Below are positions 5,994 to 29,660 of a DNA stretch of 32,246 bases, piece after piece. Each line of letters begins with the position of its first letter. Within the stretch, counting starts at the first letter, position 1. The notes below the pieces were generated by a model. That model saw only the letters and a program-made list of their open reading frames with translations, made no database searches and was not told the origin of the DNA. Made by a program: the position numbers and the translations under genes. Origin of the DNA: Polaromonas sp. (lineage in GTDB: Bacteria; Pseudomonadota; Gammaproteobacteria; Burkholderiales; Burkholderiaceae_C). The stretch lies in contig JAUSDK010000203.1 in assembly GCA_030650875.1 (NCBI GenBank), positions 1 through 32,246 on the forward strand, written 5' to 3'.

Positions 5994-6914
5994 ATGCCCC
6001 TACATGCCAAGCAGACCGGTGAGCCCACCAGCGTCAAGCGGTTTAGGTCCCGGACGCTCCATTGGCTGCTGGCGCTTTCTGGCTTGTTAGCCCCTGCTCT
6101 GCCGTTGTGGGCGGTAGAAGCCGCTCCGCCGCTGATGCTGGCCAAGGTCTACCACGCAGGCATTTCCCTGCCCGACTACTGGGTCAGTGAAAAGTTTGAT
6201 GGGGTGCGCGGTTACTGGGATGGTGAAAAGCTGCTGACCCGTGGTGGAGAGCGCATCGCCGCACCCGCCTGGTTTACCGCAGGCTGGCCCCGCGTCCCGA
6301 TGGATGGTGAGTTGTGGGCGGGACGCGGGCAGTTTTCAAAAGCCGTTTCAACCGTGCGTCAACAAACGCCCGACGACGAGGCCTGGCGCACCCTGCGTTT
6401 CATGGTGTTTGACTTGCCCGCTCAGGGTGGTCCGTTCAGTGAACGGCTTGTGGCGCTGAACAGCTTGGTAACGGACTTGGCCATTCCCTGGGTTCAGCCT
6501 GTGGCCCAAAGTAAAGTTGCCAGCCATGCGGCGCTGCAGGAGCGGCTGCGCAAGACTGTCAAACTTGGCGGCGAAGGCCTGATGCTGCATCGAGGCGCAT
6601 CGCTCTACAAAGCGCAGCGCAACGACGATCTGCTCAAGGTCAAAACCCATGACGACAGCGAAGCGCGCGTGGTGGCGCATATTCCGGGTAAAGGAAAGCA
6701 CGCCGGCCAGATGGGCGCGCTGCTGGTCGAAATGCCCGCAACGGGTGCACAGCCTGCGCAGCGCTTCAAACTGGGCACGGGTTTCAGTGACGCGCAGCGG
6801 CAGAACCCGCCCGCCTTGGGGTCGCTGGTCACTTACCGCTTCAGGGGCTTGAATGACAGCGGCATTCCACGTTTTGCCAGCTTCATGCGCGTACGCGAAG
6901 AACTGCCGCGCTGA
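5994..6914 (+). CDS. Exported minimal ATP-dependent DNA ligase (LigE-type)
   Basis: Single-domain-plus-OB DNA ligase of the small ATP-dependent group found in some proteobacteria, which would seal nicks using ATP (306 aa). After a basic N-terminus, residues 22-44 form a signal peptide (LHWLLALSGLLAPALPLWAV, then EAA), so the mature enzyme is probably periplasmic. Motif I is SEKFDGVR with Lys67 as the adenylated residue. Later motifs are visible: MDGELW, FMVFDLP (motif III), GEGLMLH (motif IV) and LLKVKTHDD (motif V), followed by a C-terminal OB-fold region (GALLVEMP, FKLGTGFSD, VTYRFRGLNDSGIPRF). The start ATG is preceded by GGAGAG. Lig E enzymes have been linked to extracellular DNA or competence; here that is inference from the signal peptide only. 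No competence gene lies next to it. Confidence 0.88.
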   Translation: MPLHAKQTGEPTSVKRFRSRTLHWLLALSGLLAPALPLWAVEAAPPLMLAKVYHAGISLPDYWVSEKFDGVRGYWDGEKLLTRGGERIAAPAWFTAGWPRVPMDGELWAGRGQFSKAVSTVRQQTPDDEAWRTLRFMVFDLPAQGGPFSERLVALNSLVTDLAIPWVQPVAQSKVASHAALQERLRKTVKLGGEGLMLHRGASLYKAQRNDDLLKVKTHDDSEARVVAHIPGKGKHAGQMGALLVEMPATGAQPAQRFKLGTGFSDAQRQNPPALGSLVTYRFRGLNDSGIPRFASFMRVREELPR

Positions 6915-9850: not shown

Positions 9851-10762
9851 ATGGAAGTCGCAATCGTTTTCCTGGTCATTGCAATCATCTTCATCACACG
9901 TTCGATCAAGGTGGTGCCCCAGCAAAACTCCTGGGTCATAGAACGCCTGGGAAAATACCACGGTTCACTGACGCCGGGGTTGAATTTTCTCATTCCCTTT
10001 ATCGACCGGGTTGCCTACAAGCACAGCCTCAAGGAAATTCCGCTTGATGTGCCCAGCCAGATTTGCATTACCCGGGACAACACCCAGCTGCAAGTCGATG
10101 GCATTTTGTACTTCCAGGTCACCGATCCGATGCGCGCCAGCTACGGTTCTTCCAACTACCTGATGGCCGTGACGCAGTTGTCCCAAACTTCACTGCGATC
10201 CGTGATCGGCAAGCTGGAACTCGACAAAACCTTTGAAGAGCGCGAAATCATCAACGCGCAAGTCGTTGCGGCCATTGATGAAGCTGCGCTGAACTGGGGT
10301 GTGAAGGTACTGCGCTATGAAATCAAGGATTTGACGCCACCGAAAGAGATTTTGCATGCCATGCAGTCGCAAATTACCGCTGAGCGTGAAAAGCGGGCCC
10401 TGATCGCAGCCTCCGAGGGCCGCAAGCAGGAGCAAATCAATATTGCGACGGGCGAGCGCGAAGCCTTTATTGCGCGATCGGAGGGCGAAAAACAGGCCGC
10501 GATCAACAATGCGCAAGGTGAAGCGTCGGCCATCATGGCGGTGGCCGAAGCCAACGCAAAAGCCATCGAGGTAGTCGCTGCGGCGATCAGCCAGCCGGGC
10601 GGCATGCAAGCGGTGCAACTCAAGGTTGCCGAAAAAGCCGTCGAGGCCTATTCAAGTGTCGCGAACAAGGCGACCACTACGTTGATCGTGCCCAGCAATA
10701 TGACCGAGGTGTCGGCCCTGATTACGTCCGCCATGAAAATGGTGCAGTCCAATCAGGCTTGA
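9851..10762 (+). CDS. SPFH/band 7 (stomatin/prohibitin-like) membrane protein, QmcA-like
   Basis: Membrane-anchored SPFH-domain protein (303 aa) expected to form large homo-oligomeric rings, and a partner of the NfeD protein just upstream. An N-terminal helix at residues 2-16 (EVAIVFLVIAIIFIT) anchors it. The band 7 domain follows (VVPQQNSWVIERLGKYHG, LTPGLNFLIPFIDRVAYKHS, CITRDNTQLQVDGILYFQV). A charged helical region comes next (ITAEREKRALIAASEGRKQ, SEGEKQAAINNAQGEA), then a C-terminus with TTTLIVPSNM. E. coli QmcA (YbbK) and its NfeD-like partner YbbJ show the same pairing. Exact function is inferred from family and context. Confidence 0.93.
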   Translation: MEVAIVFLVIAIIFITRSIKVVPQQNSWVIERLGKYHGSLTPGLNFLIPFIDRVAYKHSLKEIPLDVPSQICITRDNTQLQVDGILYFQVTDPMRASYGSSNYLMAVTQLSQTSLRSVIGKLELDKTFEEREIINAQVVAAIDEAALNWGVKVLRYEIKDLTPPKEILHAMQSQITAEREKRALIAASEGRKQEQINIATGEREAFIARSEGEKQAAINNAQGEASAIMAVAEANAKAIEVVAAAISQPGGMQAVQLKVAEKAVEAYSSVANKATTTLIVPSNMTEVSALITSAMKMVQSNQA

Positions 10763-10798
10763 TGCATCGCCACCACAACTCAGAACACAGGGCTAGCC

Positions 10799-11176
10799 AT
10801 GACTACACCTAAAAATGTCCTGGGTACCGCACTGGAGGCGTGCTCTTACGATCCGGTCACCGGCTATTTTCGGGATGGCTGCTGCAATACTGATGCGTCT
10901 GATGTGGGGTCCCACCTGGTGTGTGTGCGTGTGACAGAGGCGTTCTTGCTATTTTCTCGTTCGCGCGGAAATGACCTGATGACGCCCAAGCCAGCGTATC
11001 GATTTGCCGGACTGAAAGCGGGCCAGCGCTGGTGCCTGTGCGCGAACCGTTGGCGCGAAGCGCTGGAGGCCGGCTGCCCGCCGCCTGTGATTCTGGCCGC
11101 GACCCATGCGAAGGCACTGGAATTTGTCAGCATGGCACAGCTGGAAAAGCACCGGTTTCAAGCCGCCGAACACTAA
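10799..11176 (+). CDS. DUF2237 family protein
   Basis: Small soluble protein (125 aa) of the widespread DUF2237 family, whose function is unknown to me. The characteristic pattern is clear: NVLGTALEACSYDPVTGYFR, DGCCNTDASDVGSHLVCVRV, FLLFSRSRGNDL and FAGLKAGQRWCLCANRWREA. The five conserved cysteines (the CC pair and the CLC motif included) suggest metal binding or redox activity, which is inference. It lies 36 bases after the SPFH gene and before tRNA-Ser, and may be read through from the nfeD-SPFH unit. Confidence 0.85.
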   Translation: MTTPKNVLGTALEACSYDPVTGYFRDGCCNTDASDVGSHLVCVRVTEAFLLFSRSRGNDLMTPKPAYRFAGLKAGQRWCLCANRWREALEAGCPPPVILAATHAKALEFVSMAQLEKHRFQAAEH

Positions 11177-11224
11177 CCGGCCGTATTTCGTCCAATTTTG
11201 CGCTCGGCTGCGGCTCAGCACTGC

Positions 11225-11230
11225 TACAAT
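11225..11230 (+). promoter_or_regulatory. Probable -10 box of the tRNA-Ser promoter
   Basis: TACAAT lies 12 bases before the mature 5' end of tRNA-Ser, a suitable distance for a short 5' leader removed by RNase P. I do not see a good -35 box at 16-18 bases; TTGCGC at 11198 is 21 bases away. Confidence 0.45.
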
Positions 11231-11242
11231 CAGAGGCTTAGC

Positions 11243-11332
11243 GGAAGGGTGGATGAGCGGTTTAAGTCACACGCCTGGAAAGCGTGCGTGGGGTTATACC
11301 CACCGCGGGTTCGAATCCCGCCTCTTCCGCCA
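11243..11332 (+). tRNA. tRNA-Ser (anticodon GGA), CCA encoded
   Basis: The acceptor stem GGAAGGG pairs with CTCTTCC (one G-U), the discriminator is G11329 and the CCA end is encoded. The anticodon stem-loop has loop CTGGAAA with anticodon GGA, reading UCC/UCU codons. The long variable arm of class II tRNAs and a T arm (GCGGG TTCGAAT CCCGC) are present. At 90 nt including CCA, the size fits tRNA-Ser. Confidence 0.96.
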
Positions 11333-11977
11333 ATTAGTGAGTATTCCAGCGGGTTTCCAAAGGTTTTCCAGAACCTGCCCACGTTTTGACCCATGTCACG
11401 AACGTCAAACAAATACACACGTAGAGATTAGACAAAGCCCGGACTTGTTCCGGGCTTTCGTTTTTCTGGCCGACCTAGGAGGTTGTAGCCGTCACCCTCA
11501 TCACCTCCCTTGCCCTGCCCCGATACAGGCTCAAGTCCAGCCCCTGCAGCGCCGGCACCTTTTTGTAGTCACCATTCCCAGCCCTCCGGGACCGTCTCAC
11601 TGCGCACCCTGCGCCCTCGGTTGGCATGCAGTTCGTCACGCGCCTTAGCCAGCCCGCATCTGCCACGTCAGCTGCCCGTTTGGCCTCAGTAAATGCCCCG
11701 CGGCCTTCGTCCACTGGGCATCCTCTCATAAGCGCTGCGTTCGCGTCGGCGACCGGCTCCGGGGGATACGAAAAAGGGACAAATTCCAAATAGAGTCTTT
11801 ACTTGAAAAATGTTCCTTGCACATTGTGGCTGGGTTTATGCCTGTGCCAATCTGGCTGACCGAGGTCAATTTTTTGCAGCCTGTCATAGTCATTTCCTTG
11901 ATCGACGGGATTGAGCGAAACCGGACATTATGTCGGCCACGACAGGCAGCAGGACTCAGATCACATGCGACGCGTCT
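11333..11977. other. Gene-poor stretch downstream of tRNA-Ser
   Basis: Apart from the terminator at 11434-11465, I find no convincing gene in these 645 bases. Short open frames on both strands (for example about 105 codons on the minus strand ending at 11475) show no recognisable domain and no good start signal. A GGGACAAATTCC sequence near 11776 and a small palindrome GACATTATGTC near 11925 are present without clear meaning. The position between a tRNA gene and an accessory-looking operon fits the decayed edge of an integrated element, but no integrase or duplicated tRNA end was found. Confidence 0.6.
11434..11465 (+). terminator. Rho-independent terminator after tRNA-Ser
   Basis: A perfect 10-bp stem (AAAGCCCGGA / TCCGGGCTTT) with loop CTTGT is followed by CGTTTTT. 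It would end the tRNA-Ser transcript about 100 bases after the mature 3' end. Confidence 0.93.
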
Positions 11978-12745
11978 TCATTTTTTTTGCCGGCCTGGAC
12001 GCGCCGGTTTCGCCTTCACCGGCGTGGATTTCTGACTCGCCTGATCGAGCCACAGCAAGGTATCCACATGCGACAAAAAGCGTTGCAGGTAGTCGGGTGA
12101 CAGCTTGCGCATCAACGCAAGGGAACGAAGCACGAGCATGTGCGAATTCAGCGGGCCGGCGTTGAGAGGTCCTCGGCCGACGGCCTGCTCCACCTGGTCT
12201 TCGGCCGCCATCCTGGACCACGTCTGCCTGAAGCGGCGAACGCTCGCCATTTCAGAACTGGCTGCCATGTCGCTAGCCAGACTGCCCCCAGGATCACTAC
12301 CCAGGCGATGCTCGATGCTGTCCCGCTTCACGTTCTGGATGTACTGGTTCAGCTGGATCAACGGCCCGCAGGGTCTGTTGAACGCCGATTGCGCGCCCAG
12401 CCGGCGCATGCCCCCGTAATCGCCTGCAGCGAAAAGCCGGTGCAGTTCACGGGCCAGGTCCGGATGCCGGGCTGACAGGCTCGCCAGCTCATCGCTGGCC
12501 GCCTGCTGCGCCAGCTTGAAGCGTTCGCCGTAGTCCGACAGTGCCACTTTGAACTTGCCCTCCAGGATGCGCCGCACTTCGGCTGGCGCTGTGACCATGC
12601 GCTGCGACAGCACTTCCAGGTAATGAAAGCGCGCGGGGTCAAGGTGCTGGGCGCCTTCGTTTCGCAGGGACGCATGCCATGGCAGAAGAGGCTGTTCTCC
12701 ATCCCGTTGCGAATGCGGTATTTCGGCCAGGCCCGACGCGCTCAT
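11978..12745 (-). CDS. DUF2894 domain-containing protein (last gene of the motor-like operon)
   Basis: Soluble 255-residue protein of unknown function, recognised as DUF2894 from its central pattern (LDPARFHYLEVLSQRM, FKVALSDYGERF) and its gene neighbourhood. No catalytic motif or membrane helix is visible. It looks mostly helical, with a strongly basic Lys/Pro tail (VKAKPARPGRQKK) that could bind nucleic acid or an acidic partner; that is inference. Its ATG overlaps the stop of the OmpA/MotB-like gene as ATGA (12742-12745), so it is translationally coupled to a membrane motor-like pair. In that setting it is a candidate cytoplasmic partner or effector. Confidence 0.75.
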   Translation of the reverse strand: MSASGLAEIPHSQRDGEQPLLPWHASLRNEGAQHLDPARFHYLEVLSQRMVTAPAEVRRILEGKFKVALSDYGERFKLAQQAASDELASLSARHPDLARELHRLFAAGDYGGMRRLGAQSAFNRPCGPLIQLNQYIQNVKRDSIEHRLGSDPGGSLASDMAASSEMASVRRFRQTWSRMAAEDQVEQAVGRGPLNAGPLNSHMLVLRSLALMRKLSPDYLQRFLSHVDTLLWLDQASQKSTPVKAKPARPGRQKK

Positions 12746-13392
12746 GGGGTGGCGGGTTTTAGATTAGCGGACTTGGGCACCGGCGCCATTTCCACGCGCC
12801 GGTTCAACGCACGCCCCTTTTCATCCGCGTTGGAGGCTACCGGCTGCTCTGCGCCAAAGGCCGCGGCAAAGGCCAGTGACGACGGCATGCCTTCGTCGAT
12901 CAGGGCACGGGTCACCGTCAGGGCGCGCTGGGCCGACAGCGCAAGGTTGTCCGAAAAGCGCGGGTTGCCTTCCTGGATGGGCTTGTCGTCGGTAAAACCG
13001 CTCACCATCAGCAACTCATCGCGCTCACCCAGGTACACCGTCAACGGCGGCACGAGGCTTTTCAACAGCAAGCGGCCGTCGGGACGCAACTGGTCCGAGT
13101 TCAGGGGAAACAACACGCTGCCACTGATGCCAATGCGCCCGTTGTTCAGCGTGACCCGGCCCGTTGCCAGCGGAATGGCCAGGGCCTTTTCCAGGGCCAT
13201 GCGGCGCTGCTCTTCCACCCTGCGCTTTTGCACCTCCGACTCCAGGTTGGCCATCAGGTCCATCTGGACCACCAGCACCCCGACCAGGATCAGCACAAAC
13301 GCGCCCAGCAAACCCGACATCAGGTCCCCGAAAACGGCCCAGACCGGCGCGGTCTGCTCCATGCCGTCGCCCCTTTCGTCAAGGTCGGTCAT
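12742..13392 (-). CDS. OmpA/MotB-like peptidoglycan-binding stator protein (ZorB-like architecture)
   Basis: A 216-residue protein with one membrane helix at about 17-42 (VWAVFGDLMSGLLGAFVLIL onward). Asp23 sits at the start of that helix, where MotB and ZorB keep their ion-carrying aspartate. A short charged linker (SEVQKRRVEEQRR) follows, then an OmpA-type peptidoglycan-binding domain: SGSVLFPLNSDQLRPDG, VSGFTDDKP, NLALSAQRALTVTRALIDEG and NRRVEM. This fits the B subunit of an ion-driven 5:2-type motor, anchored to the cell wall, with the DUF802 protein upstream as the A subunit. Both neighbours overlap it by 4 bases. Family assignment is strong; motor function is inferred. Confidence 0.88.
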   Translation of the reverse strand: MTDLDERGDGMEQTAPVWAVFGDLMSGLLGAFVLILVGVLVVQMDLMANLESEVQKRRVEEQRRMALEKALAIPLATGRVTLNNGRIGISGSVLFPLNSDQLRPDGRLLLKSLVPPLTVYLGERDELLMVSGFTDDKPIQEGNPRFSDNLALSAQRALTVTRALIDEGMPSSLAFAAAFGAEQPVASNADEKGRALNRRVEMAPVPKSANLKPATP

Positions 13393-15560
13393 CCCGCGAC
13401 TCCCTCGGACAGCAAGGCTTGCCTGGTGTGGAGCTGGCGCAGGTCTTCGACAATGCCCTGCTGCGACGTGATGCTGAGGTCGATGACCTCGCGCGCCTGC
13501 GCCACGTAGTAGGCGAGCTGTTCGTCACTGCGCGCCATCGACTGGCGCATGGTGCCGTCCATGCGCTGCAGGCTTTCCATCAGCTTCTCGTTGCTGGCGT
13601 TGAAAAGCTGCACGCCATGGTTGAACGATTCGCCCAGGCTGGCCAGCTCGACCGCGCTGCCGGCCACCTGCGCCGTCACTTCTGCGGACTGGCCCGCCTG
13701 CGCCCCCAGCGTGTCGGCAAACTGCTGGCTGGCCTGGTCCATCACGGCAGCCGCAGAAGCGGCCAGTGACTCAATGGCCGCCCGCTGTTCGCCCGAGGAC
13801 TGGTTGATGGTCTGGAGCAGCGCATTGATCTTGCCCATCACGGCGGTGCGCTCCTGCAGCGCAAGGTTGTCCCGCTCGGTGAGCCGGCTCATTTCCTGGC
13901 GCAGTTGCGCGATCACGCCGGCCGCCGCCTGGGGCACCTCGGAGGCTGTTTGCATGAGGCGGGTCATAGGTGCTTCCAGCGCCGCGCCCAGCGCGGCCAG
14001 ATGCGTGGCCATGGACGCCTGCAGCGCGCCCAGCCGCTCGACAGCGGCGTTGCCGCGCGTGGCCTCGTCGTCCCTGAGCGCGCCGAGTTCCGTCTGCAGC
14101 ACGCCGGCCAGCTGGTCCATGCGGTCGCCGTGCTGCTTGAGCCACTGGGCTTCGGAGTCGATACGGGCGTGCGTCAGCTCCTCGGACTGCGCCAGCAGCC
14201 GCGTCATGCCATCCAGGGTCTGGCTGGCATGATGGCTGGCGCGCGCGTTGATCTCGCCAGCGGTTTTCTCCAGCGTCTCGCACACAGCCTGCTGCTGGGC
14301 CAGGGTCTGTGTCCCGACGCTGTGCCATTCGCTCTGGAGCGTGGCCGCCATGGATTCCAGCGCAAGCGTCCAGGCCGCCAGCCGCTGCCGGTCCGCCAAG
14401 GCCTGGTCCGATTGCGACCGGAATGCGGCCTCGTTGACCGTGGACAGCAACGTACTGGCGCGTTGCTCAAAGCTGTCCGTGAAGGTGGCCAGTGCCCGGT
14501 CCAGGCCCTGGACCTGGTGTTCGCTGGTGCGGGCATGGGTTTGCAGCGCCGTCGTCCAGGTCTCTGAGACCGTCCGGGCGGTAGCGCTGAACGCGCTGGC
14601 CAGGCCGTTCAACTGTGTCTGCGCTGCGCCGCTCACACGCTCGTGCAGGCGCTTCGATTCCTGCGCAATTTCTGTCATCGCCGCTTCGACCACCGGCTTG
14701 AGGCTCTCGCCCGCTACCCTGGCGCTGGCCGTCAGGCTGTCTTTCAGGGACTGCCCGACGGTGTCGGCCAGACCGGTGTAGGCGACGGTCACCTCACGAT
14801 GGAACTGCGCCTGACTGCCCAGCAATTGCTCGTTCAACTGCTGGCTCCGGCGCTCGATTCCTTCTATCATGGCCTGCAACTTGTCGACCACGTCGGGCAA
14901 GGCGTGCGCCTGCAGCTGCAGCACCTTGAAGGTTTCCTGACGCTGGTGGGCGAGCGACAAGGGCCGAAAGACGGTCGCAATACGGGAATCCAGCTGCCGC
15001 GCGACGTCTACCCTCTCGCGGCGGCTGATGGTCGACAGCAGGCCCAGCATGGCCGACGCGGCCACCCCGGCCACCGAGGTGCCAAATGCAAGTCCCAGGC
15101 CCTTGATAGGTGCAGCCAGCGCCGAGCGGATGGCATGAAGATCCGTCGAGCCCTCAAGCGCGAACACGGCCCCCTTGAAGGTCACGACCATGCCCAGGAA
15201 GGTGCCCAGCATCCCCAGCATGACCAGCAGCCCGACCAGGTAGGGTGTCAGCGCGGGGCCCGGCAATGCGACCCGTTCACCCTCGATGCGCAAACGCACG
15301 GCGTTTTGCAGGGACGGGTGTACGCCGCCAAGCCAGACGCCGATGTCCGGCAGCGGCTGCGCAATGCCGGCAAGCGCCGCCGCCAGCGAGGCTGTGGCCG
15401 CGCGAAACTGCTTGAGTTCGAACGCGCCCAGCAAATAAACTCCGGCGATCACCGCCGTCATGACGAGTGCCATCCAGCTTGTGCCGACAAACCCCAAGCC
15501 CACCCAGGTCACGGTCATCAGACCGATGGCAAAGGCGACTGCAAAAAAAATCCTGTTCAT
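13389..15560 (-). CDS. DUF802 protein: MotA/TolQ/ExbB-like channel with long cytoplasmic tail (ZorA-like architecture)
   Basis: Inner-membrane protein of 723 aa. Hydrophobic segments lie at about 4-24, 29-47, 107-128 and 152-176. The third contains LGMLGTFLGMVVTF, the signature of MotA/TolQ/ExbB proton-channel proteins, and the fourth (GLGLAFGTSVAGVAASAMLG) is the matching helix. From about 177 to the end, some 550 residues are Ala/Gln/Ser/Thr-rich, nearly proline-free and heptad-like, so a long helical cytoplasmic tail is expected. Parts recall methyl-accepting proteins, but there is no HAMP or clear signalling tip. Together with the downstream MotB-like protein it has the layout of ZorA/ZorB. 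It overlaps both neighbours by ATGA. I recognise the DUF802 family from memory of similar loci. Confidence 0.85.
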   Translation of the reverse strand: MNRIFFAVAFAIGLMTVTWVGLGFVGTSWMALVMTAVIAGVYLLGAFELKQFRAATASLAAALAGIAQPLPDIGVWLGGVHPSLQNAVRLRIEGERVALPGPALTPYLVGLLVMLGMLGTFLGMVVTFKGAVFALEGSTDLHAIRSALAAPIKGLGLAFGTSVAGVAASAMLGLLSTISRRERVDVARQLDSRIATVFRPLSLAHQRQETFKVLQLQAHALPDVVDKLQAMIEGIERRSQQLNEQLLGSQAQFHREVTVAYTGLADTVGQSLKDSLTASARVAGESLKPVVEAAMTEIAQESKRLHERVSGAAQTQLNGLASAFSATARTVSETWTTALQTHARTSEHQVQGLDRALATFTDSFEQRASTLLSTVNEAAFRSQSDQALADRQRLAAWTLALESMAATLQSEWHSVGTQTLAQQQAVCETLEKTAGEINARASHHASQTLDGMTRLLAQSEELTHARIDSEAQWLKQHGDRMDQLAGVLQTELGALRDDEATRGNAAVERLGALQASMATHLAALGAALEAPMTRLMQTASEVPQAAAGVIAQLRQEMSRLTERDNLALQERTAVMGKINALLQTINQSSGEQRAAIESLAASAAAVMDQASQQFADTLGAQAGQSAEVTAQVAGSAVELASLGESFNHGVQLFNASNEKLMESLQRMDGTMRQSMARSDEQLAYYVAQAREVIDLSITSQQGIVEDLRQLHTRQALLSEGVAG

Positions 15561-16297
15561 TGGTACTTCTTAACCTCGTTGCTGAATGCTTCAATCAATC
15601 CCACGACCGGCTGGAGCCGGAACTCCAGTTCCGCCAGCAAGACCTCTTCCAGTTCCTTGCCGAAGACATCCAGCCACCCGCCCGCTTGTGGCCACAAGGC
15701 CGGATCGTCCTGCCGCTGCGCAGTGCGCAGGTGCTCGAAACGCCGCTCAAGCAGCACGGGCACGGTTGACAGCAGTTTTTGCTCCCGACCACCGAGCATC
15801 TGCTCCATCACGGTATCGAAGCCCGCCAGTTGCCCGAGTTGTGGAGAAACCTTTGTGATAGCTTGCCGGATATAGGCCCGTAGGGCATCAATCCTCAATG
15901 CCATCTGGCGTTGCTGATCGAGATAACGCTGATGATACGGTGCATAGCCAGCGTCCGTCTCCGTCGCGGCTCCTGGGTGGCGTACGGGGTTACTGAGTTG
16001 TTTTGAGCTGGCAGGGGATGCACCGCTTGCCGTGATGGACTTCACCAGGGCCGTTCGCACCCGATGGAATTCCTCTTCCGGGTCAAAGGGTCTGCCTGGC
16101 AGCACATCCAGTTGTTTTTTTTCGTCAACCGTATTGATCGACTGGTGCGCCGCATGGAGTGTGATGGCGTCGAAAACGCCAAGCCATCCGCCCAGTCGTT
16201 CCGCAACATCCTGCTTCGACGTCTCAACATCCACGGAGGCCAAATCACTGAGCAGGCGAACGAGTCTTGAACTGCTGAAAATCCTGTGCAAATACAT
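15557..16297 (-). CDS. DUF3348 family protein (first gene of the motor-like operon)
   Basis: Soluble protein of unknown function (246 aa from ATG 16297), assigned to DUF3348 from its N-terminal pattern (FSSSRLVRLLSDLASVDV, ERLGGWLGVFDAITLH) and C-terminal pattern (YLDQQRQMALRIDALRAYIR, TVPVLLERRFEHLR). No catalytic motif or membrane helix is visible; most of it should be helical. The ATG start is preferred over TTG 16324 because homologues begin just before FSSSRLVRLL. TTG 16291 has a better-spaced AAGGA and is a second option. The stop overlaps the DUF802 start as ATGA. Its constant placement ahead of a channel-type gene suggests that it works with that complex. Confidence 0.78.
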   Translation of the reverse strand: MYLHRIFSSSRLVRLLSDLASVDVETSKQDVAERLGGWLGVFDAITLHAAHQSINTVDEKKQLDVLPGRPFDPEEEFHRVRTALVKSITASGASPASSKQLSNPVRHPGAATETDAGYAPYHQRYLDQQRQMALRIDALRAYIRQAITKVSPQLGQLAGFDTVMEQMLGGREQKLLSTVPVLLERRFEHLRTAQRQDDPALWPQAGGWLDVFGKELEEVLLAELEFRLQPVVGLIEAFSNEVKKYQ

Positions 16298-16538
16298 TCC
16301 TTTGACAACGAAATAGGGGAGCAAGGTCCGTCAGAACCTGAACCGAACCATCCCCATGACCAGAAACGGCCTACAGTCGATCGGGGCAACCGCATGACAG
16401 CTTACAGGTCTACAGTTGTCACTAGGCGGTTCCGACGTCACAAACCACAGATGGCTCGACGCCAAAGTGGCACCGGCAGCGTTCCCTGTCCTTCATGGCA
16501 TGGTAGTTTCAGTTGTCCCCGCCGCCTGTGGTCTACGC

Positions 16539-16559
16539 TGTTGATAACTTTCTGGATAA
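16539..16559 (-). other. Pair of DnaA-box-like 9-mers
   Basis: On the minus strand, TTATCCAGA (16559-16551) and TTATCAACA (16547-16539) lie in tandem, 12 bases apart start to start. Each matches the DnaA box TTATNCACA at 8 of 9 positions. They are in non-coding DNA. There are too few boxes to call an origin, and chance or a decayed replicon are both possible. Confidence 0.3.
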
Positions 16560-16778
16560 GTCACCAAAGAGGCGCCAGCACTGGGCTGCCAGATCGTGCT
16601 TAAAAATAAGGCAATACGGATGACCCGCCAACTCATGGTCAAATTCACCCGGGTGTTCTTCGTGTGGGTTCCGGGTATTGAGGTTGACTACCTCCCGGTT
16701 TGCTTCAGGTCTGCCGAACCACCATCACGCCTAAAATGCTTGTGCATGCCCTGTTGCGCCAAGAGGGTTTCCAGGCTG

Positions 16779-16810
16779 TAAAAAAGCCAGCCAGCTTTTA
16801 GCTGACTGGC
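16779..16810 (-). terminator. Rho-independent terminator of the binding-protein gene
   Basis: On the minus strand, an 11-bp stem (GCCAGTCAGCT / AGCTGGCTGGC, one G-U) with loop AAA is followed by a run of six T. It lies 38 bases after the stop codon of the gene at 16848. Confidence 0.92.
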
Positions 16811-16847
16811 CTCACACCTCGCGGTGGGGATCTCTTTGGTGAATGTC

Positions 16848-17978
16848 TTAGTTCAGGGCTGATTTTTTGCCGTCTTTGTACACGTACAAAGTGATGGCCG
16901 GATTTTTCAACTCGCCATTGGGCTCGAAAGCAATCGTCGTGGTCACGCCTTTGAAGTTGGCTTTGATCAACTCTGCGTTGTAGACCTTTGGATCGGTGGA
17001 GTTGGCGCGCTTCATGGCGTCAACCAGCAAAAGCGTCGCGTCATAGGTGTAAGGGCTGTAAACCTGGAACTGAGCGGGGTACTTGGCGTCATAGCGCTTT
17101 TTCCAGGCTTCGCCGCCTGGCATTTTGGCGAGCGATGCTCCGCCTTCAGCGCACACCACATTGCCGATGGTCTTGGCGCCTGCAGCCAGTTTGGCCAGTT
17201 CAGCGGTGCAGATGCCGTCGCCGCCAAAGTATTTGACGTTGCTCATGCCAAGTTGCTCCATCTGGCGCAACATGGGGCCGCCCTGAGGGTCCATGCCGCC
17301 GAAGAAAACCGCATCGGGGTTTTTGGATTTCACTGCGGTGAGGATGGCCATAAAGTCTGTGGCCTTGTCAGTCGTGAACTGCTCGTCCACCACCGTCATG
17401 CCTTTTGCAATGGCTGTCTTCTTGAAAACTTCTGCAACGCCTTGCCCATACGCTGTACGGTCATCAATGATGGCCACTCTTTTCAGCTTCAATGCATCCG
17501 CTGCGTAAAAAGCCAGACCGGCGCCCAGAGCGTTGTCGTTGGCAATGATGCGGTATGTGGTTTTGTAGCCAGGCTTGGTCAGATTGGGGTTGGTTGCCGC
17601 GCCCGTCACCATCGGGATGCCGCAGTCGTTATAGACCTTGGATGCGGGAATTGTTGTTCCTGAATTCAGGTGGCCCACCACGCCAGCGACTTTGGTGTCG
17701 CACAGTTTTTGTGCGGCCGCGGTGCCCTGTTTTGGATCAGCGGCATCATCTTCAGCGACCAATTCAAATTTGATTTTTTTGCCGCCAATGACGATATTTT
17801 GAGTGTTCAGGTCATCTATCGCCAGGCGCGCGCCATTTTCATTGTCTTTGCCATAGTGGGCTTGTGCTCCAGACATTGGTGCGACGTGACCAATTTTCAC
17901 CACTGCATCTTGTGCGGAGGCAATACCTGCAACCATTGCAAGACTAGCCACTACCGTCAGCTTTAATTTCGTTTGCAT
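16848..17978 (-). CDS. Branched-chain amino-acid-type ABC transporter substrate-binding protein (LivK/LivJ-like)
   Basis: Periplasmic type I binding protein (376 aa) of the Liv/hydrophobic amino acid family. ATG 17978 has GGAG about 8 bases upstream and begins a clear signal peptide (MQTKLKLTVVASLAMVAGIA, cleaved near ASAQ). The mature domain shows VVKIGHVAPMSGAQAHYGKD, NGARLAIDDLN, VVGHLNSGTTIPAS and FGGMDPQGGPMLRQ. The exact ligand cannot be read from sequence. A longer frame from 18029 would add 17 non-signal-like residues and is unlikely. It is monocistronic, with its own terminator; no permease or ATPase gene is nearby, so the rest of the transporter must be encoded elsewhere. Confidence 0.94.
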   Translation of the reverse strand: MQTKLKLTVVASLAMVAGIASAQDAVVKIGHVAPMSGAQAHYGKDNENGARLAIDDLNTQNIVIGGKKIKFELVAEDDAADPKQGTAAAQKLCDTKVAGVVGHLNSGTTIPASKVYNDCGIPMVTGAATNPNLTKPGYKTTYRIIANDNALGAGLAFYAADALKLKRVAIIDDRTAYGQGVAEVFKKTAIAKGMTVVDEQFTTDKATDFMAILTAVKSKNPDAVFFGGMDPQGGPMLRQMEQLGMSNVKYFGGDGICTAELAKLAAGAKTIGNVVCAEGGASLAKMPGGEAWKKRYDAKYPAQFQVYSPYTYDATLLLVDAMKRANSTDPKVYNAELIKANFKGVTTTIAFEPNGELKNPAITLYVYKDGKKSALN

Positions 17979-18215
17979 AAACACTCCGATTTGAATTACC
18001 GTTTGAAGTTGAGACTGTTTTTTACTCAACGGAGCCGAACATAACGCAATTTTCGGGCCCGTGCCATAGCAACCTACCCTAGGTTGTTCTGGATAGGATG
18101 TTTACCCTCGGCGAACGATGGACTCGCAGCATGCGCTGGCCTGGCGACGCCGCCAAGCGCGTTCCAAACGGTGAAATCAGGCGGCCTGACGGATCAACGC
18201 ATATCTTGCAGTGAC

Positions 18216-18979: not shown

Positions 18980-20496
18980 ACCCCGGTTTTGGGCAGCAGC
19001 ACGCGCCGTTTGACGGGCTTGGCTTTGGCAGGCGCTTTTTCGGCCTTGGCCAGAGAGACCTGACCAAGCAAATAGTCCAGCAACAGGGGAACAGGGCGAC
19101 CGGTCGCACCTTTCGCGGCCCCGCCTTTCCAGGCCGTGCCGGCAATGTCCAGGTGCGCCCAGGCAAAGCGGGTGGCAAAGCGCTGCAAAAACTTGGCAGC
19201 GGTCACCACGCCTGCAGCTCTGCCGGCAATGTTGGCGACATCCGCAAAGTTTGTTTTGAGCCCCTCCGCGTATTCCTCATCCAGCGGCATTCTCCAGCAC
19301 AAGTCCAGCGAGCTCTCGCCCGCCTGGGTCAGCGCCTGGGCCAGTGCCTCGTCGGTCGAGAAAAGTGCGCTGCGCACGCTACCGAGCGCGATCACGCAGG
19401 CGCCCGTCAGCGTGGCGATGTCGATCACGGCCTTGGGCTTGAATCGTTCTGCATATGTCAACGCATCGCACAGCACCAGGCGCCCTTCCGCATCGGTGTT
19501 CAGGATTTCGATGGTTTGCCCGCTCATGCTGGTGACGACATCACCGGGCTTGACCGCGCTGCCGCCCGTCATGTTTTCACTCGCCGGGATCAGGCCCACC
19601 ACGTTCAGCGCGGGCTGCAATTCGGCCAGCGCCCGGAAGGTGCCCAGCACGCTCGTGGCGCCGCACATGTCGAATTTCATCTCGTCCATTTCCGCAGCAG
19701 GCTTGATCGAGATACCGCCTGAATCAAAGGTGATGCCCTTGCCGACCAGTACCACGGGCGCCTCGGCCTTGGCCGCGCCCTCGTAGTGCAGCACGATGAA
19801 ACGCAGCGGCTCGTCGGAGCCTTGCGCCACCGCCATGAACGAGCCCATGCCCAGCTTGGCGACTTCCTTGGGACCCAGCACCTCGACCTTGATATTGGGG
19901 AATTTACCCAGCTCCCTGGCGGCGCCCGCCAGCATGGTGGGGGTTGCGTGGTTGGCCGGCCGGTTGCCCCACTCCCTGGCAAAGTCCATACCTTTGGCCA
20001 GTGCGATCCCTTTGTCGAATCCCGCCTGTGCGTCAGCAAGACTGCTTACGCCGATCACCACGCGCTGCAATTTTGCAGGGCTGGCCTTGGACTTGGTGGC
20101 GGTGTAGCTGTACAGCGCATCGCTGCAGGCCACAACGGCGGCGCGCACCACATCGGCCTGCTGGCTGTTCAGCACGCTAAGGCACACCACCACGCGTTGC
20201 GCGTTGCTGGCCTTCAGGGCGCCCAGCGCCGCATTCACGGCCGTCCGGATCTGTTTGGGGCTTCCATCACCCGCCCCCACCAGCACGGTTCGCGTTGCCG
20301 CAATGCCCAGTGTGCGGTAGGCACTCAGCAGTTTTCCCGGTTTGGCTTCAAAGTCACCGGATTTGAGCGCAAGCGCCACCAGCACTGACACAGGATCGGC
20401 TGTGGAGCTGAAATCCTGAGGGACGAGCACCACAAGCGCGTCACATTTTTCATTGCATATACGGGCGCGGGTCAGTGTTTTGAGTTCAAAGTCCAT
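18976..20496 (-). CDS. pepA: Cytosol aminopeptidase (leucyl aminopeptidase, M17)
   Basis: Di-metal M17 aminopeptidase that removes N-terminal residues from peptides (506 aa). The catalytic domain shows WGNRPANHATPTML, VGKGITFDSGGISIKP (metal and catalytic Lys), MKFDMCGATSVLG, the NTDAEGRL signature and DIATLTGACVIALG. After the normal end (GRPVPLLLDYLLGQ), a basic tail (KAEKAPAKAKPVKRRVLLPK) extends the protein by about 25 residues. Some PepA proteins bind DNA; whether the tail contributes here is unknown. It is divergent from lptF, with 59 bases between the start codons. Confidence 0.96.
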   Translation of the reverse strand: MDFELKTLTRARICNEKCDALVVLVPQDFSSTADPVSVLVALALKSGDFEAKPGKLLSAYRTLGIAATRTVLVGAGDGSPKQIRTAVNAALGALKASNAQRVVVCLSVLNSQQADVVRAAVVACSDALYSYTATKSKASPAKLQRVVIGVSSLADAQAGFDKGIALAKGMDFAREWGNRPANHATPTMLAGAARELGKFPNIKVEVLGPKEVAKLGMGSFMAVAQGSDEPLRFIVLHYEGAAKAEAPVVLVGKGITFDSGGISIKPAAEMDEMKFDMCGATSVLGTFRALAELQPALNVVGLIPASENMTGGSAVKPGDVVTSMSGQTIEILNTDAEGRLVLCDALTYAERFKPKAVIDIATLTGACVIALGSVRSALFSTDEALAQALTQAGESSLDLCWRMPLDEEYAEGLKTNFADVANIAGRAAGVVTAAKFLQRFATRFAWAHLDIAGTAWKGGAAKGATGRPVPLLLDYLLGQVSLAKAEKAPAKAKPVKRRVLLPKTGV

Positions 20497-25736: not shown

Positions 25737-28700
25737 TCAGCTGTTCAACTGCGCCCAGGCCTTGTCCAGCCGCTTCACGCTGACCGGCTGCGGCGTGCGC
25801 AACTCTTGCGCAAAAAAGCTCACCCGCAGCTCCTCCAGCAGCCAGCGGTATTCCTGCATGCGGGCATCCACCGCGCCCTTGCGGTCGGCCACCAGGCGCC
25901 AATAGCGCTGTTCCTGCGGCCGCAGTTCGGCCATTTTGGCGGCATCGCGGGCCGGGTCGGCACGCCACTTTTCCAGCCGTAACGTAATGGCCTTGAGGTA
26001 GCGCGGAAAATGCTGCAGCTGCCCGTACGGTGTGCTGGTCAAAAACCGTTTGGGCACCAGGCGCTGCAGCTGCTGGGCCGCGTCCAGCGCCGCTTCTGCT
26101 GCATTTTTGGTGTCCTTGATCTTGCGCTGGGCCACGGCAAACTCGGTCAGGATGCCTGCCGCCAGCCGCGCCACTTCGCTGGCAATCAGCGTCAGCCGGC
26201 CGCGCCCGTCGTCAATGCGCTTTTTGAAGTCCGCCTCGCAGGTGGGCAGCGGATCGAGCAAAAACGCCCGGTCCAGCGCCACTTCAATGATCTGCTGGCG
26301 CAGCTCTTCGAGCGTGCCGCCGCCCGAGTTGTCGGCGGCCCGGCCCACCAGCATGTAGGCGGTGGCGGTTTTTTGCAGGTCGGGCAGGTTTTTTTCGAGG
26401 TATTTCAGCGCGTCCTTGATCTGCAGCGAAAACAAGCGGCGCAGGCCGGCTCGGTGCTTGGCTGCGGCCGCGTCGGGCTCGTCAAACACCTCGATCGTCA
26501 CCGCGTCACCCAGGTCGATCAGCGCCGGAAAACCAATCAGCGTTTGCGCGCCTTTGCGAATTTCCATCAGTTCCGGCAATTCGCCAAAACTCCAGCTGGT
26601 GTAGCGCTCCGGCGTCTTGATGGCCAATTTTTCAGGCGCGGCTTGTCCGCATCCCGCTTGCGCTTGAGGTCTGTTTGATGCTGAATTTGGCAGCGGCGCG
26701 GCGTTTTGGGGCGTAGCGGGCGCGGTTGCCAGGTTCTTGAGCCCGGCCAGCGCCTGAAACGCCCCCCTCGCCTGTGAACCCAGCTCGCCTTTCAGCGCGC
26801 CCAGGTTGCGCCCCGCGCCCAACTGCCGGCCGTGCTCGTCCACCACCCGAAAGTTCATGAACAGGTGGGGCTGCAGCATGTCGAGCTTCAGGTCGGCGCG
26901 CTTGATGTCCAGCGACGTGGCGTCGCGCACCCACTTCAGCACCGCATCCGTCAGCGAGCCGCTGCCAAACAGCTGCGGCTCGTTCAGTTGCTCCGCCATG
27001 CGCGCGGCGGTGTCGGGCAGCGGCACCAGCCGCGAGCGCGGGCGCTGGTGCAGGGTTTTGATCAAGGCCTGGATCTTGTCCTTGAGCATGCCGGGCACCA
27101 GCCACTCGCAGCGCTCCTCGTTCACCTGGTTCAGCGCAAACAGCGGCACCTCCACCGTCACGCCGTCCTTGACGTCACCCGGTTCGTGCAGGTAGGTGGC
27201 CAGGCAGTCCACGCCGCCCAGGCGCAGGGTTTTGGGGAAAGACTGGGTGGTGATGCCGGCCGCTTCATGGCGCATCAATTCATCGCGCGTGAGCATCATC
27301 AGCGTGGGCTGCCGCTTGATCTCGTCCTTGTACCAGCGCTCGCAACTGGCGCCGGTGCAGATGTCGGCCGGCAACTGCTGGTCGTAAAAGGCGTAAATTA
27401 GCTCTTCGTCCACCAGCACGTCCTGGCGCCGCGCCTTGTGCTCCAGGTCTTGCACCTGTTCAATCAACTTCAGGTTGGCGGCCAGAAACGGCAGCTTGGT
27501 GTCCCAGTTGCCTGCCACCAGCGCTTCGCGGATGAAAATTTCCCGCGCCGTGACCGGGTCTACCCGGCCAAAATTGACGCGCCGGCCGTTGTACACCACC
27601 AGGCCATACAGCGTGGCCCGCTCCAGGGCGGTGACCTGCGCCGCCTTTTTCTCCCAGTGCGGGTCCAGCAGCTGCTTGTTTAAAAGGTGGGCCGCCACCT
27701 GCTCAATCCAGAGCGGCTCGATGTTGGCAATGCCCCGGCCAAACAGCCGCGTGGTTTCCACCAGTTCCGCCGCCACAATCCAGCGGCCCGGCTTCTTGCT
27801 GAGCTTGGCGCCCGGGTGGCGGTAAAACTTGATGCCGCGCGCGCCCAGATACCAGTCTTCGTCCTCGCTCTTGCAGCCAATATTGCCCAGCAAGCCGCAC
27901 AGCATCGACAGGTGCAGCTGCTCGTAGCTGGCCGGCTTGTCGTTCAAATGCCAGCCCTGCTCGCCCACCACGCTGTGCAGCTGGGAATGGATGTCGCGCC
28001 ACTCGCGCACGCGGCGGATGTTGACGAAGTTCTCGCGCAGCAGGGTTTCGTACTGCCGATTCGTCAGTTTATGAATCGCGTCATGGCCGCCGCGCGCGTC
28101 GCCCAGCCATTTCCAAAGCCGCAGGTAACCGACGAATTCGCTTTTCTCGTCGTCGAACTTGGCATGCGCCTGGTCGGCCTGTGCCTGCTTGTCCATGGGG
28201 CGGTCGCGCACGTCCTGCACGCTGAGCGCGCTGGCAATCACCAGTACCTCGTCCAGCGCCTGCCGGTCCTTGGCTTCCAGGATCATGCGGCCCACGCGCG
28301 GGTCCAGCGGCAGCTTGGCCAGCGTGCGGCCGACCGGCGTCAGCTCGTTGTCGTCATCCACCGCGCCCAGTTCTGCCAGCAGCTGGTAGCCGTCGGCAAT
28401 GGCGCGGCGCTGCGGCGGCTCGATGAAGGCAAAGTCCTCGATGGTGCCCAGGTGCAGCGCCTTCATGCGCAAGATCACCGAGGCCAGCGAGCTGCGCAAG
28501 ATCTCGGGGTCGGTAAAGCGCGGACGGCCGGCAAAGTCCTGCGCGTCATAAAGCCGGATGCAGATGCCGTCGGCCACCCGGCCGCAGCGGCCGGCGCGCT
28601 GGTTGGCTGATGACTGGCTCACTGGCTCCACCATCAGCTGCTCGACCTTGTTCCTGAAACTGTAGCGTTTCACGCGCGCCGTGCCGGTGTCGATCACGTA

Positions 28701-29660
28701 GCGGATGCCCGGCACCGTGAGCGAGGTTTCGGCCACGTTGGTGGCCAGCACGATGCGACGTCCGCTGTGGCCGTCAAAAATCCGGTCCTGCTCAGCCTGG
28801 CTCAGGCGCGCAAACAGCGGCAGCACCTCGGCATTGCGCGTCAGCGGCTGGTGCGCCAGGTGCTTGCGCAGATGGTCGGCCGCTTCGCGAATCTCGCGCT
28901 CGCCGGGCAAAAAGATCAGGATGTCGCCCGCGCTGTGCGGGCTTTGCCACAACTCGTCCACCGCGTCGGCAATCGCGTTGTTCATGTCGTAGTCGCGCGA
29001 CTCCTCAAACGGGCGGTAACGCTGCTCGACCGGAAACATCCGGCCCGACACCATGATCACTGGCGCTGGGCCTTTGGTTGACGCAAAGTAATCAGCGAAA
29101 CGCTGCGCATCAATTGTGGCCGAGGTGATGATGACCTTCAAGTCAGGCCGGCGCGGTAGCAACTGGCGCAGGTAGCCCAGCAAAAAGTCGATGTTCAGGC
29201 TGCGCTCGTGCGCCTCGTCGATGATGATGGTGTCGTAGGCGCGCAGCAGCGGGTCGGTCTGCGTTTCGGCCAGCAAGATGCCGTCGGTCATCAGCTTGAC
29301 GGACGCATCGCGGCTCAGCCGGTCCTGGAACCGCACCTTGTAGCCCACCACGTCGCCGAGCGGTGTTTTAAGCTCTTCGGCAATCCGTTTGGCCACGCTG
29401 GAAGCCGCAATCCGGCGCGGCTGGGTGTGGCCGATCAGCTTGCCCTGGCCCGGCGGGTAGTTGAGCTTGCCGCGCCCCATGGCCAGCACAATTTTGGGCA
29501 GTTGCGTGGTTTTTCCCGAGCCGGTTTCGCCGCAGACGATGATGACCTGGTGGGCGCTGAGCGCGGCAGTGATGTCCTCGCGTTTGCCCGATACGGGCAG
29601 TGACTCGGGAAAGGTGATGGCCAAAGGGGACAAGGAGGACAAGGCGGTATGCGCAGTCAA
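25737..29660 (-). CDS. hrpA: ATP-dependent RNA helicase HrpA
   Basis: Large DEAH-box RNA helicase (1307 aa, the usual HrpA length) that unwinds RNA and is linked in E. coli to rescue of stalled or collided ribosomes. Motif I is GETGSGKT (44-51), motif Ia is TQPRRIAA, motif II is DEAH (148-151), motif III is SATIDAQRF and motif VI is QRAGRCGR. Then come the winged-helix/ratchet region, an OB domain and the long HrpA-specific C-terminal part (GVTVEVPLFALNQV, RWYKDEIKR). The start must be non-ATG: an in-frame TAA lies four codons above TTG 29660 and the first Met (VLAMGRGK) lies after motif I. TTG 29660 and further TTGs at 29642, 29633 and 29624 are the options. Confidence 0.95.
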   Translation of the reverse strand: MTAHTALSSLSPLAITFPESLPVSGKREDITAALSAHQVIIVCGETGSGKTTQLPKIVLAMGRGKLNYPPGQGKLIGHTQPRRIAASSVAKRIAEELKTPLGDVVGYKVRFQDRLSRDASVKLMTDGILLAETQTDPLLRAYDTIIIDEAHERSLNIDFLLGYLRQLLPRRPDLKVIITSATIDAQRFADYFASTKGPAPVIMVSGRMFPVEQRYRPFEESRDYDMNNAIADAVDELWQSPHSAGDILIFLPGEREIREAADHLRKHLAHQPLTRNAEVLPLFARLSQAEQDRIFDGHSGRRIVLATNVAETSLTVPGIRYVIDTGTARVKRYSFRNKVEQLMVEPVSQSSANQRAGRCGRVADGICIRLYDAQDFAGRPRFTDPEILRSSLASVILRMKALHLGTIEDFAFIEPPQRRAIADGYQLLAELGAVDDDNELTPVGRTLAKLPLDPRVGRMILEAKDRQALDEVLVIASALSVQDVRDRPMDKQAQADQAHAKFDDEKSEFVGYLRLWKWLGDARGGHDAIHKLTNRQYETLLRENFVNIRRVREWRDIHSQLHSVVGEQGWHLNDKPASYEQLHLSMLCGLLGNIGCKSEDEDWYLGARGIKFYRHPGAKLSKKPGRWIVAAELVETTRLFGRGIANIEPLWIEQVAAHLLNKQLLDPHWEKKAAQVTALERATLYGLVVYNGRRVNFGRVDPVTAREIFIREALVAGNWDTKLPFLAANLKLIEQVQDLEHKARRQDVLVDEELIYAFYDQQLPADICTGASCERWYKDEIKRQPTLMMLTRDELMRHEAAGITTQSFPKTLRLGGVDCLATYLHEPGDVKDGVTVEVPLFALNQVNEERCEWLVPGMLKDKIQALIKTLHQRPRSRLVPLPDTAARMAEQLNEPQLFGSGSLTDAVLKWVRDATSLDIKRADLKLDMLQPHLFMNFRVVDEHGRQLGAGRNLGALKGELGSQARGAFQALAGLKNLATAPATPQNAAPLPNSASNRPQAQAGCGQAAPEKLAIKTPERYTSWSFGELPELMEIRKGAQTLIGFPALIDLGDAVTIEVFDEPDAAAAKHRAGLRRLFSLQIKDALKYLEKNLPDLQKTATAYMLVGRAADNSGGGTLEELRQQIIEVALDRAFLLDPLPTCEADFKKRIDDGRGRLTLIASEVARLAAGILTEFAVAQRKIKDTKNAAEAALDAAQQLQRLVPKRFLTSTPYGQLQHFPRYLKAITLRLEKWRADPARDAAKMAELRPQEQRYWRLVADRKGAVDARMQEYRWLLEELRVSFFAQELRTPQPVSVKRLDKAWAQLNS

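What the first reader, a model, noticed from the sequence alone, without database searches (positions are those of the whole stretch)
11978..16297. Four-gene operon with a ZorA/ZorB-like motor but unknown partners (DUF3348-DUF802-OmpA-DUF2894)
Seen: four minus-strand genes, each overlapping the next by ATGA, encode (i) a soluble helical protein, (ii) a four-helix channel protein with the TolQ/ExbB/MotA signature LGMLGTFLGMVVTF and a ~550-residue helical cytoplasmic tail, (iii) a one-helix MotB-like protein with Asp23 at the helix start and an OmpA peptidoglycan-binding domain, and (iv) a soluble protein with a basic tail. Known: ion-driven 5:2 motors (MotAB, TolQR, ExbBD) and Zorya anti-phage systems, whose ZorA carries a long intracellular tail and works with ZorB plus ZorC/ZorD or ZorE effectors. 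Inference: this is a stator-type motor with a long tail that passes an envelope signal to two uncharacterised cytoplasmic partners. Defence, envelope stress or a structural role are all possible; the wide presence of these DUFs in Burkholderiales, as I remember it, argues that it may not be a classical defence island.
Basis: partly seen in the sequence, partly recalled or inferred. Interest (0 to 1): 0.88.

Follow-up and report, generated by a model that had tools for sequence, protein, structure and literature searches.

The report
Zorya type III anti-phage motor operon
Four overlapping genes in a Polaromonas genome encode a type III Zorya system, a known membrane-motor defence against bacterial viruses; this copy sits at a site that lacks it in several close relatives, and how its two helper proteins act is still unknown.

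Summary
All four genes match PADLOC models of Zorya type III (E 2e-268 to 2e-58). That type was defined in 2021, and a Stenotrophomonas representative lowered phage plating in E. coli (PMC8565338, passages). The partners are therefore named, but their biochemistry is unknown.

The cassette is accessory. DUF3348 occurs in 5 of 61 genus genomes, this one included. Here it separates tRNA-Ser(GGA)/DUF2237 from a livK-like gene; DUF2237 and livK lie under 1 kb apart in 7 of 18 genus genomes checked. P. jejuensis and probably Polaromonas sp. JS666 carry it elsewhere.

Motor residues are invariant: ZorB Asp23 in 70 of 70 rows, ZorA Thr120 and Ser162 in 51 of 51.

Not found in the held papers: ZorA3 varies from 530 to 1088 aa, yet one motif lies 34-48 residues from its C-terminus in 51 of 51. 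DUF2894 has a basic C-terminus in 70 of 70. Both partners are predicted all-helical, with no nuclease match among those listed.

Verdict: known system; the effector step is the open question.

The parts
15557..16297 (-). DUF3348 protein, 246 aa (ZorF in the two papers, ZorG3 in PADLOC-DB)
   Evidence: Pfam PF11828 4.4e-76; PADLOC PDLC00658 9e-76; AlphaFold2 model all-helical, pLDDT 83.1, pTM 0.80
13389..15560 (-). ZorA3, 723 aa: channel part plus about 540-residue cytoplasmic tail
   Evidence: PADLOC PDLC00648 2e-268; profile of 51 ZorA3 matches type I ZorA of PDB 8VVN chain C, E 5.6e-6, best single stretch i-E 0.0036
15201..15203 (-). ZorA Thr120, predicted ion-path residue
   Evidence: Thr in 51 of 51; by hand count opposite Thr158 of 8VVN chain C in the alignment
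15075..15077 (-). ZorA Ser162, predicted ion-path residue
   Evidence: Ser in 51 of 51; by hand count opposite Ser198 of 8VVN chain C in the alignment
13461..13520 (-). ZorA tail tip, residues 681-700
   Evidence: mean conservation 0.93 in 51 rows; motif 34-48 residues from the C-terminus in 51 of 51 proteins of 530-1088 aa
12742..13392 (-). ZorB3, 216 aa: one transmembrane helix and an OmpA-type domain
   Evidence: PADLOC PDLC00651 4.1e-107; NCBIfam PRK09040.1 356 bits, cut-off 194
13324..13326 (-). ZorB Asp23
   Evidence: Asp in 70 of 70 rows
11978..12745 (-). DUF2894 protein, 255 aa (ZorG in the two papers, ZorF3 in PADLOC-DB)
   Evidence: Pfam PF11445 2.3e-61; PADLOC PDLC00652 2.1e-58; model all-helical, pLDDT 79.8, pTM 0.48
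11981..12040 (-). basic C-terminal 20 residues of the DUF2894 protein
   Evidence: net charge +7 here; +3 or more in 70 of 70 rows
11243..11332 (+). tRNA-Ser(GGA) beside which the cassette lies
   Evidence: ARAGORN; the same tRNA at all 9 homologous sites fetched from other genomes of the genus
11333..11977 (.). left junction between the tRNA and the cassette, no convincing gene
   Evidence: homology to relatives ends at 11333-11346; one 104-aa ORF on the minus strand without Pfam match
16298..16847 (.). right junction between the cassette and the livK-like gene
   Evidence: homology to four sites without the cassette resumes at 16847-16850

Best explanation
The operon is a Zorya type III anti-phage system. 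Supported here: ZorA/ZorB motor proteins with an invariant ion-path aspartate, an OmpA-type domain, a long cytoplasmic tail and the two type III partners in fixed order, on an accessory cassette that this genome has and several close relatives lack at the same site. Inferred by homology to types I and II: ZorB grips peptidoglycan disturbed by phage entry, ions pass Asp23, ZorA turns, and its rod carries the signal into the cytoplasm. Inferred here and weaker (about 0.35): the constant rod tip docks or releases the basic DUF2894 protein, which then acts near the injection site by binding nucleic acid or membrane, while DUF3348 controls the motor or rod base. As no nuclease or helicase match was found for either partner, binding, recruitment of host enzymes or motor gating is more likely than cutting by these proteins.
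For: PADLOC type III models for all four proteins. Fixed order in 72 of 80 relatives, the other 8 cut by contig ends. Published defence by a type III representative (PMC8565338, passages) and published need for the ZorB Asp, wall binding and the ZorA tail in types I and II (PMC11890865, sections 6 and 10). Asp23 70 of 70; Thr120 and Ser162 51 of 51. Sporadic presence and a site without the cassette in relatives. Partners diverge fastest: median pairwise identity 0.40 and 0.39 against 0.745 for ZorB and 0.58 for ZorA. Fixed tip and basic DUF2894 tail. DUF2894 distances go best with the ZorA tip, partial rank correlation 0.39.
Against: No test of this copy. The published test used another genus, and the sequences could not be compared here. 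The distance correlation is not specific: ZorB, which cannot touch the cytoplasmic tip, also gives 0.30 with it, and the DUF2894-over-DUF3348 order for the tip failed in 47 of 300 half-samples. Phe133 is invariant in type III ZorB (70 of 70) where, by my reading of the motif, types I and II have a His needed for wall binding (H186, H141), so wall binding may differ. The absence of a fold match proves nothing for helical models. Genus-wise clustering of the ZorB tree shows long residence in some lineages, which a non-defence role would also give.
Confidence: 0.8

Rival explanations
1. Same family, other outcome: the two partners only regulate the motor, and defence comes from ion leakage and depolarisation of the infected cell (abortive infection), with no action on DNA.
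For: Payne et al. propose that ZorF and ZorG regulate ZorAB activity (PMC8565338, passage). Neither partner gave a nuclease or helicase match in the searches run.
Against: In types I and II the extra components act on DNA (PMC11890865, section 10). The basic tail of DUF2894 (70 of 70) suggests binding of nucleic acid or membrane.
Confidence: 0.4
2. A housekeeping envelope motor of the Tol-Pal kind, or an envelope-stress device, unrelated to phages.
For: MotB/OmpA-type domain; the nearest neighbours of relatives are mostly metabolic or regulatory by Pfam and at least 76 of 104 lack a PADLOC match at 1e-15; the ZorB tree clusters by genus.
Against: Sporadic even within the genus, 5 of 61; site without the cassette in relatives; published defence by a type III representative.
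Confidence: 0.07
3. A spare flagellar-type stator.
For: The best PDB sequence matches of ZorB are MotB proteins, over the wall-binding domain.
Against: The full-length family matches are ZorB3 and PRK09040, not MotB; no Pfam MotA match at E 1 or better for the channel protein; long tail and two partners.
Confidence: 0.02

Closest known systems
Zorya type III (Payne et al. 2021, PMC8565338; PADLOC-DB ZorA3, ZorB3, ZorF3, ZorG3)
   Same: All four components, their order, and domain content
   Different: No difference found. The labels ZorF and ZorG are swapped between the papers (ZorF = DUF3348) and PADLOC-DB 2.0.0 (ZorG3 = DUF3348).
Zorya types I and II (PMC11890865; PDB 8VVN, 8VVI)
   Same: ZorA/ZorB motor with tail, catalytic Asp, OmpA-type domain; profile match to 8VVN chain C
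   Different: No ZorC, ZorD or ZorE in the operon. ZorA3 length varies from 530 to 1088 aa in 51 proteins, whereas that paper calls component size well conserved within each family for types I and II. Phe133 in place of the wall-binding His (my reading of the motif).
MotAB flagellar stator; TolQR and ExbBD
   Same: Expected 5:2 ion-driven plan and, for MotB, the OmpA-type domain
   Different: Long cytoplasmic tail and two cytoplasmic partners; no Pfam MotA match

Membership tests
Zorya type III | ZorA3 motor protein with long tail | tested here: met
   PDLC00648 2e-268 over three stretches
Zorya type III | ZorB3 with OmpA-type domain and helix Asp | tested here: met
   PDLC00651 4.1e-107; Asp23 70 of 70
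Zorya type III | DUF3348 protein | tested here: met
   PF11828 4.4e-76, PDLC00658 9e-76
Zorya type III | DUF2894 protein | tested here: met
   PF11445 2.3e-61, PDLC00652 2.1e-58
Zorya type III | motor genes flanked by the DUF3348 and DUF2894 genes | tested here: met
   same order in 72 of 80 relatives, 8 cut by contig ends
Zorya type III | protection against phage by this copy | not testable with these tools
   published only for a Stenotrophomonas operon
Zorya type I | ZorC and ZorD genes | tested here: not met
   not among the four operon proteins; the 20 neighbouring ORFs scanned with Pfam only show one DEAD helicase, an HrpA-like protein with DUF3418 at 25737-29660, over 9 kb away
Zorya type II | ZorE with HNH domain | tested here: not met
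   no HNH domain in the operon or the 20 neighbouring ORFs scanned with Pfam
MotAB stator | MotA-family channel protein by Pfam | tested here: not met
   no MotA/ExbB family match at E 1 or better for the 723-aa protein
Zorya (any type) | 5:2 ZorA:ZorB assembly | not tested
   no complex prediction was available; inferred from 8VVN and 8VVI

The most novel reading that the evidence does not exclude
Type III is a nuclease-free branch of Zorya: a motor whose rod varies twofold in length but ends in a constant docking tip that delivers a basic, all-helical DNA- or membrane-binding protein (DUF2894), so that phage entry is stopped by binding, compaction or recruitment of host enzymes, not by an enzyme of its own.
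Probability: 0.3. Interest if true: 0.6.

Novelty: already known. Interest (0 to 1): 0.33.

Why it matters
As a locus it is one more Zorya type III. It makes one open question testable: types I and II end in proteins that act on DNA, whereas type III showed no such protein in the searches run here. The constant tip on a rod of variable length and the basic end of DUF2894 give precise places to cut, and genomes of the same genus with the site lacking the cassette, or with the cassette elsewhere, give natural comparisons.

Tried and rejected
Defence island: the nearest ORF on each side (120-900 aa, picked by a simple GC3-filtered script that can skip true genes or pick false ones) was taken for 52 of the 80 named loci, those with all four genes and enough flank, giving 104 proteins. 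PADLOC at 1e-15 matched 27 families (25 shown), none in more than 2 of 104 proteins; at most 28 proteins can be involved, so at least 76 have no match. The matches include some strong ones (SoFic 5.7e-117, PDC-S01 2.9e-102, a RecD-type protein 3.4e-78), so a few cassettes do sit beside defence-like genes. Control: 1 of 83 proteins from nine loci of the genus without the cassette (DrmD); 13 of the 96 ORFs found for the control were left out when I passed them on, and the control differs in genus and position, so the two rates are not strictly comparable.

Integrase-type insertion: searching the tRNA 3' end through the window gave only one 16-mer with 2 mismatches, at 20015, outside the cassette, and no 11-mer is shared by the two junctions in either orientation. 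How the cassette was inserted is unresolved.

A fifth linked gene: clustering of neighbour ORFs found groups shared within a genus (such as Hydrogenophaga and Acidovorax) and generic ABC-type ATPase relatives in 20 loci, but no gene placed constantly beside the cassette across genera (the 45 largest groups were viewed).

L102 looked like a fusion and L116 like a truncation; both are runs of N in the records. P0080 looked like a sensor protein fused to the ZorA tip; one member on one 2.7-kb contig, probably an assembly chimera.

Papers: PMC11890865, passages, outline, sections 6 and 10; PMC8565338, passages; PMC12204202, passages; all others only as search listings. The Nature 2025 Zorya paper is not held; I saw only its citation. 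That the tip and tail features are unreported rests on the searches in the held library and on nothing more.

Full report
Observation. The four overlapping genes are real and as described. The proteins have 246, 723, 216 and 255 aa, and the three junctions overlap by four bases and read ATGA. One correction: Pfam DUF802 is a 53-residue stretch in the tail (320-372), not the channel.

Identity. PADLOC-DB assigns all four proteins to Zorya type III: DUF3348 9e-76, ZorA3 2e-268, ZorB3 4.1e-107, DUF2894 2.1e-58; weaker matches to ZorA1 (7.1e-10), ZorA2 (1.7e-5), ZorB1 (1.8e-17) and ZorB2 (4.5e-6) place the motor in the wider family. NCBIfam calls the ZorB family only 'hypothetical protein' (PRK09040). 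Payne et al. [quoted passage not shown] coli BL21-AI. Mariano et al. (PMC11890865, sections 6 and 10) solved type I and II ZorAB as 5:2 complexes and showed need for the ZorB Asp, wall binding and the ZorA tail. [quoted passage not shown] The two papers use ZorF for DUF3348 and ZorG for DUF2894; PADLOC-DB 2.0.0 has the labels the other way round.

Conservation. A scan of genome contigs for ZorB confirmed 303 relatives, of which the best 80 were kept. All four genes in the same order were found in 72 of 80; the other 8 are cut by contig ends and keep the order as far as they reach. Of 41 loci fetched through DUF3348, 39 have ZorA next to it; the two without (L007, L008) are weak DUF3348 matches of 26.7 and 23.6 bits. 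Median pairwise identity is 0.745 for ZorB and 0.58 for ZorA, but 0.40 for DUF3348 and 0.39 for DUF2894. Asp23, Phe133, Thr134, Asp135, Arg156 and Arg194 are invariant in 70 of 70 ZorB rows, Thr120 and Ser162 in 51 of 51 ZorA rows. That the ZorB positions from 133 on correspond to the wall-binding residues of types I and II is my reading of the motif, not a computed alignment; on that reading type III has Phe where types I and II have a needed His.

Distribution. DUF3348 over its cut-off occurs in 12 of 299 genomes of the phylum sample, 7 of 200 of the order sample, 42 of 150 of the family sample and 5 of 61 of the genus sample; each count includes this genome, and the order count includes the weak match without ZorA. 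Matches covering at least 80% of ZorB were found in 27 of 72,556 plasmid records and in none of 50,697 phage records.

Site. The genus is Polaromonas: contig lengths identify G685 as P. jejuensis (537,680 bases) and G667 probably as Polaromonas sp. JS666 (5,200,264 bases), and the nearest ZorB is 98% identical in a Polaromonas bin. In the window the cassette lies between tRNA-Ser(GGA) with DUF2237 and a livK-like gene. By match coordinates in 18 other genomes of the genus, DUF2237 and the closest livK lie under 1 kb apart in 7, 21-152 kb apart on the downstream side in 5, on the opposite side in 1, and on different contigs or without a close livK in 5. In the four close sites fetched, similarity to the window stops at 11333-11343 and resumes at 16847-16850, leaving 210-715 bp where the window has 5.5 kb; tRNA-Ser(GGA) stands at all 9 sites fetched. 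One of the four is the probable JS666, which has the cassette elsewhere, beside a tRNA-Met and ribosomal-protein-like ORFs (by my reading of the translations). In JS666 and P. jejuensis, within the stretch compared (window 10700-18100), similarity of 87-89% covers 11914 or 11948 to 16335, essentially the cassette alone, plus one 61-base piece in JS666. None of the 80 named loci has the window's livK, pepA, holC, lptF, nfeD, SPFH, DUF2237, decarboxylase or ligase genes in the flanks fetched (up to 10 kb, often less); two have a distant SDR relative. The ZorB tree groups mostly by genus, with Rhodoferax forced into at least two changes. So the cassette is inherited within lineages and also relocated or gained; direction and mechanism were not shown.

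Neighbours. At least 76 of 104 nearest-neighbour proteins have no PADLOC match at 1e-15, against 82 of 83 in an imperfect control. A few relatives do have defence-like neighbours. It is not a classical defence island, in the window or as a rule.

Tail. In 51 ZorA proteins of 530-1088 aa, residues 1-320 and 541-720 of the window's protein are occupied in 97% or more of rows, and the middle falls to 65-90%; residues 681-700 average 0.93 conservation, as high as the channel. A motif there lies 34-48 residues from the C-terminus in 51 of 51. For types I and II, component size is described as well conserved. A protein search with residues 541-720 gave 5,381 proteins at E 0.001 or better among the 7,996 candidates scored; 120 were listed, and those with a Pfam domain bear DUF802, except one probable chimera.

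Partners. Both are predicted all-helical (DUF2894 with pTM 0.48, so its domain arrangement is unsure). No nuclease or helicase match was found by Pfam, PADLOC, NCBIfam, PDB sequence profiles or the folds shown. DUF2894 has a median pI of 10.3 and a net charge of +3 or more in its last 20 residues in 70 of 70 rows; for DUF3348 it is 1 of 70. In partial rank correlations of distances, DUF2894 goes best with the ZorA tip (0.39) and DUF3348 with the base (0.26); DUF2894 exceeded DUF3348 for the tip in 253 of 300 half-samples. ZorB also gives 0.30 with the tip, which cannot be contact, so this is a lead only.

Mechanism. The motor steps follow by homology; the effector step is inference. I rate identity as Zorya III at 0.95, anti-phage function of this copy at 0.85, tip docking of DUF2894 at 0.35, and pure motor regulation with ion leak at 0.4.

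Verdict.

Noticed in passing
   Followed up: partly
   Followed up: partly
window 5994-6914: ATP-dependent DNA ligase-type protein (DNA_ligase_OB_2 1.1e-27) beside a lysine/arginine-type decarboxylase gene; not linked to the operon.
   Followed up: no
window 11346-11977: About 630 bases between tRNA-Ser and the cassette without a convincing gene and without similarity to the relatives' sites; a strong terminator-like hairpin at 11434-11458 on the plus strand.
   Followed up: partly
names ZorF and ZorG: Both papers call DUF3348 ZorF and DUF2894 ZorG; PADLOC-DB 2.0.0 labels them the other way round.
   Followed up: yes
protein P0080: PilJ, HAMP and GAF domains followed by a ZorA tail tip 70% identical to this one over 190 residues, on one 2.7-kb metagenome contig; probably an assembly chimera.
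   Followed up: partly
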